Assembly: GCA_024693325.1 (NCBI GenBank)
Contig: JAILLA010000108.1
Coordinates: 1-64,000, forward strand
Direction: 5' to 3'
Length of the DNA stretch: 64,000 bases
DNA from: Solobacterium sp.
GTDB taxonomy: Bacteria > Bacillota_I > Bacilli_A > Erysipelotrichales > Erysipelotrichaceae
In this document: one piece after another, positions 14,190-21,098 of the stretch
Position numbering within the stretch: position 1 is the stretch's first letter
Layout of the letters: each line of letters begins with the position of its first letter
Notes under the pieces: generated by a model
What the model was told of the DNA's origin: nothing
Database searches by the model: none
The model's input: the letters and a program-made list of their open reading frames with translations, nothing else
Translations under genes and position numbers: made by a program

Positions 14190-14924
14190 ATGCTGAAAGT
14201 AAACCACATGACAAAACACTACGGCAGAACAGCTGCCTGTTCTGATCTGACATTCACGCTGGATCAGGGCAGTGTCACAGTGCTTCTGGGGCCAAACGGA
14301 GCGGGAAAAAGCACATTGATGAAATCTGTGATCGGTCTGCTCAGGTTTGAAGGGGAGATAACCGTGAACGGTTTCTCTCCGGATCAGCCTGAAGCACGCA
14401 GGCTGCTCGGATATATCCCGGAGCTTCCCGCGCTCTATCCGAATCTGACCGTATGGGAACATATGGAATTCCTTGCCAGGGCATACCGCCTGAAGGATTA
14501 TAAAGAGCGCAGTGAAGCGCTTCTGAAACGTTTTGAACTGTATGAGCACAGAAAGAAGTTCGGGGATGAGCTTTCAAAAGGTATGCAGCAGAAGCTGAAT
14601 ATCTGCCTGGGCCTCCTGAGTGAACCGGAGGTGCTGCTTCTGGATGAACCTATGATCGGTCTGGATCCCCACGCCATCAAGGAAGTCCGCAGTATGATCC
14701 ATGAACAGAGGGATCTGGGGAAAACCATGCTGATAAGTACACATATCATTGACAGTGTGTCTGATTTCTTTGATCGTGCACTGATCATGCAGAAAGGCGT
14801 GATCAAGGCGGATGTGACCAGGGAACAGCTGGAAGAAAACGGACAGACCCTCGAAGAACTGTTCTTTGCCGTGACCGAAGGGATCGGCAGGGATGAAGTC
14901 AGCGGGGAGGAATTCGCAAAATGA
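14190..14924 (+). CDS. ABC transporter ATP-binding protein
   Basis: The 244-residue ATPase has Walker A GPNGAGKST (34-42), a signature LSKGMQ (128-133, a variant of LSGGQ), and Walker B LLLDEP (149-154). It belongs to the CcmA/YhaQ-like drug-exporter ATPases. AGGAGAAG after the riboswitch terminator sets the start. Its stop overlaps the start of the next gene by four bases (ATGA), so the ATPase and permease are translationally coupled. With the permease it would form an exporter; the riboswitch suggests expression in response to manganese. Confidence 0.9.
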   Translation: MLKVNHMTKHYGRTAACSDLTFTLDQGSVTVLLGPNGAGKSTLMKSVIGLLRFEGEITVNGFSPDQPEARRLLGYIPELPALYPNLTVWEHMEFLARAYRLKDYKERSEALLKRFELYEHRKKFGDELSKGMQQKLNICLGLLSEPEVLLLDEPMIGLDPHAIKEVRSMIHEQRDLGKTMLISTHIIDSVSDFFDRALIMQKGVIKADVTREQLEENGQTLEELFFAVTEGIGRDEVSGEEFAK

Positions 14925-17482
14925 AACTGTTTCTGTATTACAGTCTGCATGCCTTCATAAACCAGCTGAGAAAAATCTTTAAAACATGGGTGCTGGTGCT
15001 GATCCTTGCCTGCGGACTGATCGGCGGACTGATCGGATACGGCGCGGCGACACTTGTAGAGATTTCGGAAGAAACATATGCGGAAGTTCCGCAGGAAAGC
15101 ACTGCCGATCTCATACAGGAACTGCCGGAAGGAATTACGGTCGGAGATATTACGGAACTGGCTGCCGGTGCTGTGATCGCAGGTGTGCTCCTGTTTGAGA
15201 TAGCCACCGCCCAGAAAAACGGCGCTTCGCTGTTTCTGCCGGCGGATGCCGCACTGCTGTTCCCGTCTCCCATGAGGCCGCAGTCGGTACTGATGTTCCG
15301 TATCGCGACACAGCTGGCGACAGCCCTTGCCGGAAGTATCTACATGCTGTTTCAGCTGCCGAACCTGGTGCTGAATGTCGGTATGTCGGTACCGGGAGCG
15401 CTGTCCCTGATCCTTGCATGGGCTTTTCTGATCATGACCGGCAAGCTGTTTCAGCTGCTGATCTATCTGCTGTCTTACCGCAGCGGATTTGTAAAAAAAC
15501 ATACCGTGAACGCAGTGGCTGTGTTTACTGCCGGATGCGCGCTTCTGTTCGGCATGTATTATCTGCGCAGTTCGAAAGACCTGCTTTCTGCGGCAGTTGG
15601 TTTCTTCAATGCGCCGGCATCGTACTACATACCGGCATTCGGCTGGATGAAGGGAATGGTACGTGCGGCGCAGGAAGGAAATATGCTGCGAACACTTCTG
15701 TTCATCCTTGCCCAGACGGTGTTCTGTATCCTTATGGTTCTGGCGATCTACGGCATGAAAGCTGACTTCTATGAAGATGCACTGAAGAAGACCGAAGAGA
15801 CGGCAGCCAGACTGGAAGAGGCGACCGAAGGCAGGGTCCGTACTAGGAAACGCAAAGAAACGAAACGTATGGTGTCTGATCGCAGAATGCGCGGAAACGG
15901 TGCTTCAGTGTATTTCTTCAAGACACTGCATATACGCTTCCGTGACATCAGGAAGGGCATTTTGTCAAAGACTGCGCTCACATATCTGCTGTGTGCCGGA
16001 GGAATGTCTGCATTTGTCAGACTTGTTCTTCAGAAGGATTCGCTTCTGCCGGCTGTGCTGGTACTGGGAGTTCTCGTGTTCTACCGGTCTCTTGGAAATC
16101 CGATGAATGATGACGCGGCGAAACCATTCTTTGTACTGATACCGGAAAGCGCCTGGAAAAAACTGTTTTATTCCACTGCAGGAGGATGTGTCTGCTGTCT
16201 TCTGGATCTGCTGCCGTCATTGATCTTCTGTACGATATTTCTGAAGGCGGATCCGATTGAGGCGCTGGCCTGGATCCCGGTACTTGTATCGGTCGATTAT
16301 TACGCAACATCCGCCAGAACATTCCTGGATCTTTCACTCCCGGAATCACTTTCCAAAAATATCCGGCAGACGCTTCTGATCCTGTTCCTGTATTTCGGAC
16401 TGCTTCCGGATATTGCGGTCATTGCGATGGGATATGCATACAACAAGGTAGGAAGAGCCGGAATGGCAGTCGCTTTGCTGAATGTGTTCTTTGGCAGTCT
16501 GTTCTTCGGACTTGCCGGAATGTACCGTGACCCGGTACAGGGCAGACAGGTCAGGCTCACCTGCAGCAGGGGAAGTCAGGATGACGCAAAACAGATCTTC
16601 AGCAGACTCGGTTTCTCTCTGAGCGCGCTGCTGGCTTCCAGTGTGATCCTGCAGCTTCTGGCTTCAAAACTGCAGACGGAAAATGTATTTCTCCAATGGA
16701 GTCTGGTATTCCTGCCGATCTGGGTCAGCGGATTATTGCTGCTGCCGGCTGCCAGGGCGGTACCGTCATCCGGGAGTACATCCGTAAGGCTTAACGTACG
16801 GGACGCTGTTGACAGCTTCCTGATCAGCCTGTTCCTGATGTATTCAGCCAATGTATTCGGACTGCTTGTAACCAATGCGCTGAACCGCTTCCTGCATATT
16901 GTCTCCCAGAATAATGTACAGTCATTGCTGATGGAAGATAATATCCCGCTGAAACTGCTGTTTGCTGTGATCCTTGGACCGTTGTTTGAAGAGACGGTAT
17001 TCCGGAAATTCCTGATCGACAGGACAAAGCGGTTCGGCGGCAGGACGGCAGTCATTCTCAGTGCTGTAGCATTCGGCCTGTTCCATGGCAATCTGAACCA
17101 GTTCTTCTATGCGACGATGCTGGGATTGATATTCGGATATGTATATCTGAATACCGGCAGGCTCAGATATACGATCATCCTGCACATGCTGATCAACTTC
17201 ATGGGAGGCATTATCGCTCCGTATCTGGTAACTCATATGCCGGACTTTATATCCGATAACGTATCACTGAAGCTGATCCTGGGAGGTGCGTATTTCCTGA
17301 TCCTGTTTGCGGCATATCTGCTGGGGTTTGTACGCCTGTGCATCAGGGCGAGAACTGTCAGATTTGATACACAGTCGGATGAACTGGTTCTGCGTGAGGG
17401 CAGAAGGGCATCCTGGATGAATCCCGGTATGATCACGTTCACCGTGATGTGCATCGGAATGTTTGTTGTATCGATGATCTGA
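14921..17482 (+). CDS. ABC exporter permease fused to a CPBP intramembrane protease
   Basis: The 853-residue membrane protein has two parts. Residues 1 to about 540 form a polytopic permease like the putative ABC exporter family (PF16962), with a charged loop near 290-320. Residues about 560-853 form a CPBP (CAAX protease and bacteriocin-processing) domain with all three motifs: EETVFR (Glu690, Glu691), FGLFH (His722) and HMLIN (His755, Asn759). CPBP proteases cleave within or near the membrane, and some act in peptide maturation or immunity. Fusion to the permease suggests that cargo is cleaved during export or that the protease guards the exporter. Start overlaps the ATPase gene. No small substrate gene was seen beside it. 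Confidence 0.8.
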   Translation: MKLFLYYSLHAFINQLRKIFKTWVLVLILACGLIGGLIGYGAATLVEISEETYAEVPQESTADLIQELPEGITVGDITELAAGAVIAGVLLFEIATAQKNGASLFLPADAALLFPSPMRPQSVLMFRIATQLATALAGSIYMLFQLPNLVLNVGMSVPGALSLILAWAFLIMTGKLFQLLIYLLSYRSGFVKKHTVNAVAVFTAGCALLFGMYYLRSSKDLLSAAVGFFNAPASYYIPAFGWMKGMVRAAQEGNMLRTLLFILAQTVFCILMVLAIYGMKADFYEDALKKTEETAARLEEATEGRVRTRKRKETKRMVSDRRMRGNGASVYFFKTLHIRFRDIRKGILSKTALTYLLCAGGMSAFVRLVLQKDSLLPAVLVLGVLVFYRSLGNPMNDDAAKPFFVLIPESAWKKLFYSTAGGCVCCLLDLLPSLIFCTIFLKADPIEALAWIPVLVSVDYYATSARTFLDLSLPESLSKNIRQTLLILFLYFGLLPDIAVIAMGYAYNKVGRAGMAVALLNVFFGSLFFGLAGMYRDPVQGRQVRLTCSRGSQDDAKQIFSRLGFSLSALLASSVILQLLASKLQTENVFLQWSLVFLPIWVSGLLLLPAARAVPSSGSTSVRLNVRDAVDSFLISLFLMYSANVFGLLVTNALNRFLHIVSQNNVQSLLMEDNIPLKLLFAVILGPLFEETVFRKFLIDRTKRFGGRTAVILSAVAFGLFHGNLNQFFYATMLGLIFGYVYLNTGRLRYTIILHMLINFMGGIIAPYLVTHMPDFISDNVSLKLILGGAYFLILFAAYLLGFVRLCIRARTVRFDTQSDELVLREGRRASWMNPGMITFTVMCIGMFVVSMI

Positions 17483-17681: not shown

Positions 17682-18575
17682 ATGAAATATGCTGCGGCAG
17701 TCGATATCGGTGGAACAAATACAAGAATTGCACTGATCAACGAAAACTACGACATTGAAGAACGCATCCAGTTCCCGACAGACGCAGAAGATCCCTGGAC
17801 AGTGCTGAAAAAGATATGTGAAACGATCAGAGGATTCGATAAACAGGTCATCGGTACCGGGCTTTCCTGTCCCGGACCTTTGGACCTGATCAATGGCAGA
17901 GTACTGACTCCGCCGAACCTGCACGGACCATGGCATTTCCTGAATATCACGGATGAACTGGAGCTGCTCATGCGTATGCCCGTATATCTGGAAAATGACG
18001 CTAATCTGGCAGCCCTGGCAGAAGCATTGCTCGGCGCAGGGAAGGATCACCGTATCGTGCAGTATCTGACGGTATCCACGGGACTCGGCGCCGGTCTGGT
18101 CATTGACAGAAAGATCTATCGCGGTGCTCATGGATTTGCAAACGAAGTAGCCAATACGATCCTGTTTGCCAACGGCCCGCAGCATGGCGAACTGCTGGCA
18201 GGAGCTTTGGAAGCGATCAGCTCCGGTACAGCGATCGGTCATAGGGCTGTCATGGCAGGACTGGTCATCAGGCATGCCGGAGATGTAAATGATCTGGCAC
18301 GTGCCGGAAATCCTGCCGCAAAGCTGATCATGAATGAGGCAAAACAGTATCTTGCGAATTATATAGCCGGTGTGATCGGTTTTGCAGACCCGGATATTAT
18401 CATTCTCGGCGGATCGGTCGCACTGAAGATCGACGGTTTTGTACAGGAAGTGGAAGAACTTGTAAAGACAAAAGTTTATCCGGTCGTACGGCCGTATGTA
18501 AATATCCGGAAAGCAACCCTGGATGAAGACTGCGGACTTCTCGGGGCTGCATGTCTCGTATTTGAAAACAATTGA
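17682..18575 (+). CDS. ROK-family sugar kinase/regulator-like protein
   Basis: The 297-residue protein starts with the phosphate motif VDIGGTNTRIALI (Asp8) and has the catalytic Asp in LENDANLAALAEA and the STGLGAGLVIDRKIYRG loop of ROK proteins. The usual zinc motif CxCGxxGC is absent, and no helix-turn-helix precedes the fold. It is likely a hexose kinase acting on glucose, fructose, mannose or similar. GGAGG precedes the start. It lies ten bases before the PMI-ROK fusion gene in the same operon, which suggests phosphorylation of mannose or fructose followed by isomerisation. Confidence 0.85.
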   Translation: MKYAAAVDIGGTNTRIALINENYDIEERIQFPTDAEDPWTVLKKICETIRGFDKQVIGTGLSCPGPLDLINGRVLTPPNLHGPWHFLNITDELELLMRMPVYLENDANLAALAEALLGAGKDHRIVQYLTVSTGLGAGLVIDRKIYRGAHGFANEVANTILFANGPQHGELLAGALEAISSGTAIGHRAVMAGLVIRHAGDVNDLARAGNPAAKLIMNEAKQYLANYIAGVIGFADPDIIILGGSVALKIDGFVQEVEELVKTKVYPVVRPYVNIRKATLDEDCGLLGAACLVFENN

Positions 18576-18584
18576 GGAGCTGAT

Positions 18585-20429
18585 ATGACGATTCTGAAAC
18601 TGAAGCCTGCCTGCAAGGATTATCTTTGGGGCGGGCAGAGACTGAAAAATGAATTCAACGTAGAATATGACGGTGATGTGCTTGCAGAAGCCTGGGAACT
18701 TTCCTGCCATCCTGATGGTCCGTCCATGATCGAAAACGGGCCGTATGCCGGGAAAAGCCTGAAGGAGTACATCGATGAAAACGGCATGGAAGTGCTTGGC
18801 ACTCACTGCCGCAGATTCCGGGAATTCCCGATCCTGACAAAGTTCATCGATGCCAAGGACAATCTGTCTGTCCAGGTCCATCCTTCCAACGGTTATGCCC
18901 TGCAGAATGAAGGACAGTACGGAAAAACTGAGATGTGGTATGTCCTTGATGCTGAGCCGGGAGCCTATCTTTATTACGGCTTCAGGAATGAGATCTCCAT
19001 TGAAGAATTCTCAGAACGGATCCGGACCAATACACTTCTGGAAGTACTGAATCCTGTCGAAGTGCATAAAGGGGATACCCTGTTTATTGAATCAGGTACA
19101 CTTCATGCGATCGGAAAAGGCATTCTGATCGCGGAGATCCAGCAGAATTCCAATGTGACCTACCGGGTATATGACTATGGAAGGGTCGGGAAGGACGGCC
19201 GTAAGAGAGATCTGCATATCGAGAAGGCACTGGCTGTGACCAACCGTGTGCCGATCGTTCAGCATGGTGAAAACTATCCGCATATTGCGGACTGCGATTA
19301 TTTTACGGTAGACAAGCTTGATCTGGACGGCAGGCTGACATACCGCATGCAGGGGAATGTTGATGAAACATCATTCCTTTCCATCCTGATCCTGGATGGA
19401 GAAGGAACGATCCATAACCGCGGGGAAAAGATCAGCTATCGTAAAGGCGACAGCCTGCTTCTGACAGCAGGCAGCGGTGACTATACGATCGAAGGAAAGT
19501 GCGATGCGCTCCTGACCACTATACGGGAAAAAGCCAACCCGATCCGTGCCGGCATTATTATCGGTTCGGCAAAGATCCAGATGGGACTGGTCAATGACCA
19601 GAATGAACTGATCGCAGTCAGGGAATATGAGACTGACAGAAAAAAGACAGCTGCGGAAATCGTAGATGAAGTAGCGGAAAAAACACTGGCTCTGCTTGAG
19701 GAGAATAAGGTGCCTCTTGATCAGTGCATCGGAGTCGGCGTCGGTGTACCGGGAACGATCGACCGCAGGAACGGCAGGGTGATCTATTCCAACAACCTGC
19801 GCTGGGAAGATGTCAGTCTTCAGGAGATCCTCGGAAAAGTAATTCCCTGTCCGGTAAGGATCGCAAATGATGCGGACTGCGCAGCGCTCGGAGAAGCGGT
19901 TGCCGGAGCCGGCAAGGAATACAGCGATGTCATGATGTTTACGCTCGGCAATGGTGTCGGGGGCGGTATTATCCTGAACGGGGAAGTATTCGAAGGCGGC
20001 ATTATGGGCGGCAGTGAAGTCGGACATATGGTCGTCCGCCAGGCAGGAAGACAGTGTACCTGCGGCAGAAAAGGGTGTCTGGAAGCTTATGCTTCCGTGC
20101 CTTCATTGCTGAAAGCAGCCAGACAACGAAAAAACAGGGAGGTATCCCTGCAGGAGATCTTCAGCAGTCTGGATGATATCGACATGGAAGAAGTCGTGGA
20201 ACAGTATCGGGAAATGCTCGGGACAGGCATCGTGAATATCGTCAATCTGTTCCGTCCCCAGCTGATCCTGCTGGGCGGAGCACTGTCTCCATTTGTCAGA
20301 CAGATGATCCCGGAGCTGAAGACAATGATGGAGGAAGACTGTTTCGGCGGCGTGTACGGAACCATCCCTGAGCTGAATGTTGCCCAGCTGGGAGATACAG
20401 CCGGAATGATCGGTGCAGCAAATCTGTAA
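18585..20429 (+). CDS. Fusion: mannose-6-phosphate isomerase (type I) plus ROK domain
   Basis: Of 614 residues, about 1-315 are a class I phosphomannose isomerase with zinc ligands Gln97 and His99 (SVQVHPSN), Glu116 (KTEMWYV) and His174 (SGTLHAIG). Residues about 321-614 are a ROK domain with catalytic Asp429 (ANDADCAALGEA), the GNGVGGGI loop and the zinc motif CTCGRKGC (491-498). The usual first phosphate loop DIGGTK is changed to IIIGSAK, losing the Asp, so the kinase activity may be weakened. The enzyme would interconvert mannose-6-P and fructose-6-P, with a linked sugar-binding or kinase half. GAGGAG precedes the ATG. Terminator follows. Confidence 0.85.
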   Translation: MTILKLKPACKDYLWGGQRLKNEFNVEYDGDVLAEAWELSCHPDGPSMIENGPYAGKSLKEYIDENGMEVLGTHCRRFREFPILTKFIDAKDNLSVQVHPSNGYALQNEGQYGKTEMWYVLDAEPGAYLYYGFRNEISIEEFSERIRTNTLLEVLNPVEVHKGDTLFIESGTLHAIGKGILIAEIQQNSNVTYRVYDYGRVGKDGRKRDLHIEKALAVTNRVPIVQHGENYPHIADCDYFTVDKLDLDGRLTYRMQGNVDETSFLSILILDGEGTIHNRGEKISYRKGDSLLLTAGSGDYTIEGKCDALLTTIREKANPIRAGIIIGSAKIQMGLVNDQNELIAVREYETDRKKTAAEIVDEVAEKTLALLEENKVPLDQCIGVGVGVPGTIDRRNGRVIYSNNLRWEDVSLQEILGKVIPCPVRIANDADCAALGEAVAGAGKEYSDVMMFTLGNGVGGGIILNGEVFEGGIMGGSEVGHMVVRQAGRQCTCGRKGCLEAYASVPSLLKAARQRKNREVSLQEIFSSLDDIDMEEVVEQYREMLGTGIVNIVNLFRPQLILLGGALSPFVRQMIPELKTMMEEDCFGGVYGTIPELNVAQLGDTAGMIGAANL

Positions 20430-20479: not shown

Positions 20480-20621
20480 GTGCAGGGAACATCTCCGGGC
20501 ATCATGAAACTGCAGAAGGAACAAAGACACGGATCTGATCAGATATTTTTCCGGAATTCATCTGTACACTTTCAAAACTGCCGCAAAGAATGATACTTTG
20601 ATAGCAGCGGAGGTTCAATGT

Positions 20622-21098
20622 ATGTTTAGAGAATTGGTTAGAAAGCATAAGCAGCTTGGCATGGATGAAACGATCAATGTCCTGAAAACGGAAACAAGGG
20701 GTGTACTGAGTGTCAATGGTGATGACGGTTATCCGTACGGGATGCCGATGAATCACTACTATAACGAAGATGACGGATGTATCTATTTTCATCAGGGAAG
20801 AGTCGGTTACCGCCTGGAAATGCTGAAGAAGGATCATAAGGTTTCATTCTGCACGTTTGATAAAGGTTATCGGAATGAAGGTGAATGGTCATTGAATGTA
20901 CGCAGTGCCATTGTGTTCGGAACAATAGAGATCATTGATGATCCGGAGGTCATTGCGGATATCGGGGATAAGCTGAGCCGTAAGTTTACGCAGGATGAAG
21001 AGTATATCCGTCAGGAGATCCTCAGATCAGGTCCGGGGACATATATTCTGAAACTGACACCGGAATATATGACCGGAAAACTTGTCAATGAATCCTGA
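20622..21098 (+). CDS. Pyridoxamine 5'-phosphate oxidase-fold (NimA-like) flavin protein
   Basis: About 158 residues with a split-barrel flavin-binding fold: TRGVLSVNGDDGYPYGMPMNHYY, then IYFHQGRVGYRLEMLKKDHKVSF and an SAIVFGTIEII strand, as in the NimA/PNPOx-like family found in gut anaerobes. It probably binds FMN or haem and reduces small molecules; the substrate is unknown. The ATG at 20622 is chosen because GGAGG lies eight bases before it; the earlier in-frame start (20598) has no such site. It stands alone and converges on the AraC gene with 22 bases between. Confidence 0.8.
   Translation: MFRELVRKHKQLGMDETINVLKTETRGVLSVNGDDGYPYGMPMNHYYNEDDGCIYFHQGRVGYRLEMLKKDHKVSFCTFDKGYRNEGEWSLNVRSAIVFGTIEIIDDPEVIADIGDKLSRKFTQDEEYIRQEILRSGPGTYILKLTPEYMTGKLVNES

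What the first reader, a model, noticed from the sequence alone, without database searches (positions are those of the whole stretch)
18585..20429. Mannose-6-phosphate isomerase fused to a ROK domain whose first phosphate loop is changed
The isomerase half is complete. In the ROK half the DIGGTK loop reads IIIGSAK, losing the Asp, while catalytic Asp429 and the zinc motif are kept. The free ROK gene before it has a full loop but lacks the zinc motif. The two ROK proteins could be complementary, with one the kinase and the other a sugar sensor or scaffold.
Basis: partly seen in the sequence, partly recalled or inferred. Interest (0 to 1): 0.55.

Follow-up and report, generated by a model that had tools for sequence, protein, structure and literature searches.

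The report
Sugar isomerase with disabled kinase domain
A gut-bacterial enzyme that interconverts two sugar phosphates carries a fused sugar-kinase domain whose phosphate-transfer parts are lost while its sugar-holding pocket is strictly kept, so it probably senses sugar rather than phosphorylating it.

Summary
Window 18585-20429 encodes a complete class I mannose-6-phosphate isomerase (ManA) fused to a full-length ROK domain whose phosphate loop reads IIGSAK instead of DIGGTK. The fusion is a family spread over Erysipelotrichaceae, Lachnospiraceae and Selenomonadaceae.

I compared 75 non-redundant members, in two groups. In one (21, Lachnospiraceae-type, usually beside beta-mannan genes) 12 keep both kinase aspartates. 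In the other (54, mostly rumen/gut MAGs, with the window) none keeps both; the second-loop Thr and the loop's second Gly are replaced in 54 of 54, and the catalytic Asp is Asn in 17. Yet seven sugar-site and zinc residues are invariant in 75 of 75, and the domain evolves no faster relative to ManA than in intact members. Of 45 scorable free ROK proteins, 44 keep both acids.

Best reading: a former bifunctional sugar kinase/isomerase whose kinase half became a sugar-binding pseudokinase, probably regulating or scaffolding ManA. Loss of phosphotransfer is well supported; ligand and regulation are inferred. The neighbouring free ROK kinase sits beside the fusion in only 6 of 30 family genomes, so an obligate pair is not supported. 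I found no report of this fusion in the papers searched.

The parts
18585..19532 (+). ManA half (residues 1-316), class I mannose-6-phosphate isomerase; presumed metal/active-site residues Q97, H99, K114, E116, H174, R194 (names recalled) intact
   Evidence: TIGR00218 157.4 bits over cut-off 116.2; 1qwr E 1.8e-56; the six residues identical in 75 of 75 fusions
19542..20426 (+). ROK half (residues 320-614), glucokinase-like fold, presumed pseudokinase
   Evidence: PF00480 210 bits; model residues 314-614 align to 2qm1_B, Z 36.2, rmsd 2.1, 299 aligned
19551..19577 (+). first phosphate loop GIIIGSAKI (residues 323-331); canonical DIGGTK: Asp, second Gly and Thr replaced
19869..19871 (+). catalytic Asp429, kept here, Asn in 17 of 54 group members
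19950..19952 (+). Asn456 in second phosphate loop (canonical GTG), Thr replaced in 54 of 54
20016..20027 (+). ExGH sugar motif (E478, H481), kept
   Evidence: 75 of 75 invariant
20055..20084 (+). zinc motif CTCGRKGCLE (C491, C493, C498) and E500, kept
   Evidence: 75 of 75 invariant
17682..18575 (+). free ROK gene, 297 aa, nine bases upstream of the fusion, intact DIGGTN loop and D106, no zinc motif; probable active sugar kinase
   Evidence: neighbour in 6 of 30 family genomes

Best explanation
The gene encodes a working mannose-6-phosphate isomerase tethered to a ROK pseudokinase. The ancestral fusion was probably a bifunctional enzyme: the ROK half phosphorylated a hexose (mannose most likely, from the pathway) and the ManA half turned mannose-6-phosphate into fructose-6-phosphate. 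In the window's group the ROK half has lost the residues that hold and transfer the ATP phosphate (loop Asp or catalytic Asp, second Gly and Thr of the loop, Thr of the second loop) but keeps the hexose site and the zinc site. It most likely still binds a hexose or hexose phosphate and uses the lobe closure of the ROK fold to regulate or stabilise the attached isomerase, much as ROK repressors use the same fold to read sugars without phosphorylating them. Shown: fusion, its spread, residue losses, residue retention, constraint. Inferred: loss of activity, ligand binding, effect on ManA.
For: Both acids kept in 0 of 54 rows of the window's group against 12 of 21 in the other. Column test: of 20 ROK columns at least 90% conserved in 53 presumed kinases, those strongly lost are G328 (0 of 54 kept), T456 (0), T329 (2) and D429 (37), all at phosphotransfer sites; T350 is kept in 41, and the other 15 in at least 51 (T329 was used to pick the kinases, so it is not independent). 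Seven sugar/zinc residues defined by the GNE structure paper (PMC2742894, passages) are invariant in 75 of 75. Control: 44 of 45 scorable free ROK proteins have an acid at the loop and Asp at the catalytic site; the exception, L010, has an N-terminal HTH-like segment as in ROK repressors. ROK-to-ManA divergence ratio is 1.65 in the 54-row group and 1.65 in intact members, so no decay; median dN/dS of the ROK half 0.151 over 60 pairs.
Against: No activity or binding data exist. The window protein itself keeps D429, so residual or altered activity is possible. Conserved pocket and zinc could serve folding alone. The relative placing of the two halves is not known: model pTM 0.53, with weak stretches in the ManA half. 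Within Lachnospiraceae and other Clostridia a test of one reason for kinase loss (mannose PTS) was not significant, p = 0.31.
Confidence: 0.6

Rival explanations
1. The fused ROK half is now only a structural part (dimerisation or folding partner) of the isomerase and binds no ligand that matters.
For: F. nucleatum NanK has a dimerisation domain and zinc is thought to hold the active site of ROK proteins (PMC5458393, passages). In clade I the domain is lost or reduced in some lineages: L160 is a ManA ending in a ROK stub.
Against: Sugar-contact side chains N428, E478, H481, E500 are invariant in 75 of 75, not only the zinc cysteines.
Confidence: 0.2
2. The domain is still a kinase, slow or with another phosphate donor, using a rebuilt loop.
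For: D429 is kept in 37 of 54 and in the window; the predicted fold is intact.
Against: 17 of 54 have Asn429; all 54 lost T456 and the GGT loop; 0 of 54 keep both acids.
Confidence: 0.12
3. The domain is a decaying remnant of a bifunctional kinase/isomerase that is no longer needed.
For: Repeated change: 7 changes between intact and broken on the tree; truncated relatives in clade I.
Against: ROK/ManA divergence ratio equals that of intact members (1.65 and 1.65); ROK dN/dS 0.151; 73 of 295 ROK columns stay invariant in 54 rows.
Confidence: 0.08

Closest known systems
GNE (UDP-GlcNAc 2-epimerase / ManNAc kinase)
   Same: Sugar-epimerising enzyme fused to a ROK kinase domain; same five sugar residues and HC3 zinc site (PMC2742894); ROK halves align at Z 33.7 (2yhy)
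   Different: GNE's first half is an unrelated epimerase (recalled) and its ROK half is an active kinase
ROK repressors (Mlc, NagC, Lmo0178)
   Same: ROK fold used to read a sugar; phosphate loops altered in the two examples seen here (L010, and L144 minus strand); Lmo0178 bound to inducer aligns at Z 32.9
   Different: The window protein has no DNA-binding domain; the presumed reader is fused to a metabolic enzyme instead
Class I mannose-6-phosphate isomerase ManA (1qwr, B. subtilis)
   Same: First half, E 1.8e-56, Z 26.2, presumed active-site residues kept
   Different: Stand-alone in B. subtilis; here carries about 300 extra residues
ROK glucokinases (2qm1 E. faecalis, 3vgk S. griseus)
   Same: Closest fold and sequence of the second half
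   Different: DxGxT loop and GTG loop lost in the window protein

Membership tests
ROK sugar kinase (motifs as in PMC5458393) | DxGxT nucleotide-binding motif | tested here: not met
   I-I-G-S-A in the window; no row of the 54-row group has D-x-G-x-T
ROK sugar kinase (motifs as in PMC5458393) | strictly conserved catalytic Asp | tested here: met
   D429 present in the window protein; Asn in 17 of 54 of its group
ROK sugar kinase (motifs as in PMC5458393) | ExGH sugar motif | tested here: met
   E478-V-G-H481; E, G and H in 75 of 75
ROK sugar kinase (motifs as in PMC5458393) | CxCGxxGCx(E/D) zinc motif | tested here: met
   C491-T-C-G-R-K-G-C498-L-E500; the three Cys and the Glu in 75 of 75
ROK sugar kinase (motifs as in PMC5458393) | kinase activity | not testable with these tools
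   needs purified protein
Class I mannose-6-phosphate isomerase | curated ManA model over its cut-off | tested here: met
   TIGR00218 157.4 bits, cut-off 116.2
Class I mannose-6-phosphate isomerase | presumed metal and active-site residues (names recalled) | tested here: met
   Q97, H99, K114, E116, H174, R194 identical in 75 of 75
[quoted passage not shown]
   N-terminal half is ManA; no HTH domain in the Pfam scan, and NagC/Mlc models match the ROK part only

The most novel reading that the evidence does not exclude
A new kind of sugar-gated metabolic enzyme: a ROK pseudokinase that senses a hexose or hexose-6-phosphate and controls a fused mannose-6-phosphate isomerase, i.e. the ROK sugar reader wired to an enzyme instead of DNA, arising more than once from a bifunctional sugar kinase/isomerase still present in gut Lachnospiraceae.
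Probability: 0.4. Interest if true: 0.7.

Novelty: new variant of a known kind. Interest (0 to 1): 0.52.

Why it matters
Pseudokinases are well known among protein kinases; a sugar kinase turned non-catalytic reader inside a metabolic enzyme would be a clean bacterial case, with presumed intact relatives (12 of 21 in clade I), presumed pseudokinases (54 of 54 in clade II) and a truncated form (L160) in one protein family. It makes the step from kinase to sensor testable with a handful of purified proteins. Family models match the ROK half well, so such proteins can easily be taken for sugar kinases.

Tried and rejected
Obligate pair with the upstream free ROK: rejected, neighbour in 6 of 30 family genomes (flanks up to 1.5 kb, some loci end sooner).

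Kinase made redundant by mannose PTS (EIID, PF03613): looked strong in the first 28 genomes but not after 62 more handles (one genome, G493, was in both, so 89 in all). By group: intact clade I 3 of 13, broken clade I 4 of 11, clade II Lachnospiraceae or other Clostridia 8 of 18, Selenomonadaceae 15 of 18, Erysipelotrichaceae 24 of 24; within Lachnospiraceae and other Clostridia 12 of 29 broken against 3 of 13 intact, p = 0.31. Five genomes with truncated or fragmentary forms (G315, G609, G342, G483, G427) were left out of that count; 2 of the 5 have EIID. So taxonomy explains it.

Kinase made redundant by mannose-1-phosphate from GH130 phosphorylases: rejected as a general reason, since 8 of 12 clade I genomes tested have GH130 over cut-off and 0 of 16 clade II genomes tested do, though three clade II loci lie near GH130.

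R. intestinalis RiGH1_D2 as a characterised fusion: considered, not supported; 14 of 15 genomes of the genus of G687 lack a match at 1e-90, and the paper's residue numbers fit GH1 plus ManA (my arithmetic). Whether R. intestinalis is among the 15 is not told by the tool.

A statistical link between loss of loop Asp and of catalytic Asp on independent tree pairs: too few pairs. Within clade I, loss of both acids goes with loss of T456 (11, 1, 3, 6; Fisher p = 0.016), but rows are related, so I do not lean on it.

Rows dropped before counts: L138 (reading frame split), L152 (stop in ManA part), L158, L159 (partial), rows with over 100 gaps, and all but one of each 95% identity cluster (123 rows to 75).

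Full report
What is there. Window 18585-20429 encodes a 614-residue protein: a class I mannose-6-phosphate isomerase (residues 1-316) followed by a full ROK domain (320-614). Nine bases upstream lies a separate 297-residue ROK gene (17682-18575) on the same strand. The genome is a 3.6 Mb assembly; its closest named relatives in genome contigs are gut Solobacterium and Erysipelotrichaceae MAGs.

The loop. ROK kinases carry DxGxT; the window reads I325-I-G-S-A. The second phosphate loop reads GNG for GTG. The catalytic Asp429, the ExGH motif and the zinc motif are kept. The motif list follows PMC5458393 (passages read) and the sugar-contact list follows PMC2742894 (passages read).

Spread. In 272 genomes of the window's family, 48 have a match at 1e-100; in 32 it runs past the ManA half (29 over nearly the whole length, three cut short) and in 16 it is ManA alone. 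In 397 genomes of the family of G288 (L137's genome; Lachnospiraceae-type), 13 have the full fusion, one of them with a stop in the ManA part, and three have partial or odd forms. In the named genome collection 523 places encode a relative; the best 80 were kept, and all 80 cover both halves; their titles name mainly Erysipelotrichaceae/Solobacterium, Lachnospiraceae (with Butyrivibrio, Roseburia, Dorea, Lachnoclostridium) and Selenomonadaceae, nearly all MAGs.

Two groups. After removing partial rows and clustering at 95%, 75 of 123 rows were left; a tree without the trait columns splits them 21 to 54 with SH-aLRT 100 (quick tree, root not inferred). Clade I (21, Lachnospiraceae-type) has both Asps in 12, loop Asp lost but catalytic Asp kept in 6, the reverse in 2, both lost in 1. 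Clade II (54, with the window) has 0, 37, 10 and 7 (derived). Parsimony needs 7 changes between intact and broken. That intact is the older state rests on the wider ROK family, not on the root.

Which residues go and which stay. I took 53 presumed kinases (43 free ROKs with T at position 329, 10 intact fusions) and listed the 20 columns at least 90% conserved. In clade II, G328 is kept in 0 of 54, T456 in 0, T329 in 2, D429 in 37, T350 in 41; the other 15 columns are kept in 51 to 54. Choosing kinases by T329 makes that column non-independent. Sugar-site N428, E478, H481, E500 and zinc C491, C493, C498 are invariant in 75 of 75; for seven such columns all to be invariant by chance among the 73 invariant columns of 295 in clade II has probability 4.5e-5, which ignores that active sites are conserved in general.

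Control. Of 46 near-full free ROK proteins in the loci held, 45 could be scored; 44 have an acid at the loop (D 23, E 21) and Asp at the catalytic site. The exception (L010) begins with a helix-turn-helix-like segment, as does L144 minus strand, which also has broken phosphate loops though it keeps both acids (the HTH call is by eye, not by a family scan). The control set holds some close relatives of each other.

Constraint. Median NG86 dN/dS in clade II is 0.074 (ManA) and 0.151 (ROK) over 60 pairs with dS under 1.5; clade I gives 0.078 and 0.174 but over 4 pairs only (68 of 75 rows had codons). The median ratio of ROK to ManA divergence is 1.65 in clade II, 1.65 in intact clade I and 1.99 in all clade I. 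So the domain in clade II is not decaying.

Structure. AlphaFold2 on 45 rows gives mean pLDDT 78.6, pTM 0.53; the ROK half is confident, ManA has weak stretches (98-113, 188-229 with breaks) and the placing of the halves is unknown. The ROK half aligns best with ROK glucokinases (2qm1_B Z 36.2) and also with the inducer-bound repressor Lmo0178 (5f7r, Z 32.9); the ManA half with 1qwr_B (Z 26.2).

Context. Sixteen of 19 clade I loci have at least one gene of the GH1, phosphomutase, GH130, epimerase, GH36 or SGNH-esterase clusters near the fusion, against 11 of 49 clade II loci (flank lengths differ; representatives of these clusters identified). GH130 lies on the same contig within about 15 kb in 7 of 12 clade I genomes tested (positions). 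This gene set resembles the beta-mannan locus of Roseburia intestinalis, where mannose-1-phosphate is turned into mannose-6-phosphate and then fructose-6-phosphate (PMC6385246, passages read). Two ideas on why kinase activity became dispensable (PTS, GH130) were tested and not supported; see Tried and rejected.

The free ROK gene. It is a probable active kinase of the zinc-free kind; close relatives of it lie beside the fusion in 6 of 30 family genomes, other ROK genes in a few more. It may supply the lost activity in those genomes, but cannot explain the group as a whole.

Literature. Searches for the fusion and for ROK pseudokinases listed no paper that, by title and start of abstract, describes either; I saw listings only for those. 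Passages of PMC12696579, PMC13278490 and PMC4856308 do not mention it either. The library lacks most subscription journals. GNE mutants with lost kinase activity are known to me from memory only.

Verdict. Observation confirmed and widened; interpretation partly supported. Loss of ordinary phosphotransfer: about 0.85. Retained sugar binding: about 0.7. Regulation of ManA by the bound sugar: about 0.45. These three figures are judgements.

Noticed in passing
window 14921-17482: 853-residue protein joining a putative ABC exporter permease (PF16962) to a CAAX protease domain (PF02517).
   Followed up: no
L160 (G315), 1498-2484 minus: Close clade I ManA that ends in the first residues of a ROK domain and then a stop: a fusion cut back to ManA.
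   Followed up: partly
G609:C1:1078885-1081329: A mannose-PTS EIID gene lies about 600 bases upstream of a ManA (L161) without the ROK half.
   Followed up: no
G007:C23, G022:C45, G023:C61: Second ManA-like genes with open frames of about 507-514 residues, near 571-579-residue ManA-like genes.
   Followed up: no
G000:C102:18316-19305: The window's genome has a second, stand-alone ManA (42% identity to the fused one), so the fusion is not its only isomerase gene.
   Followed up: no
window 20598-21098: PPOX-type flavoprotein resembling Nim nitroimidazole reductases but far below the curated cut-off.
   Followed up: no
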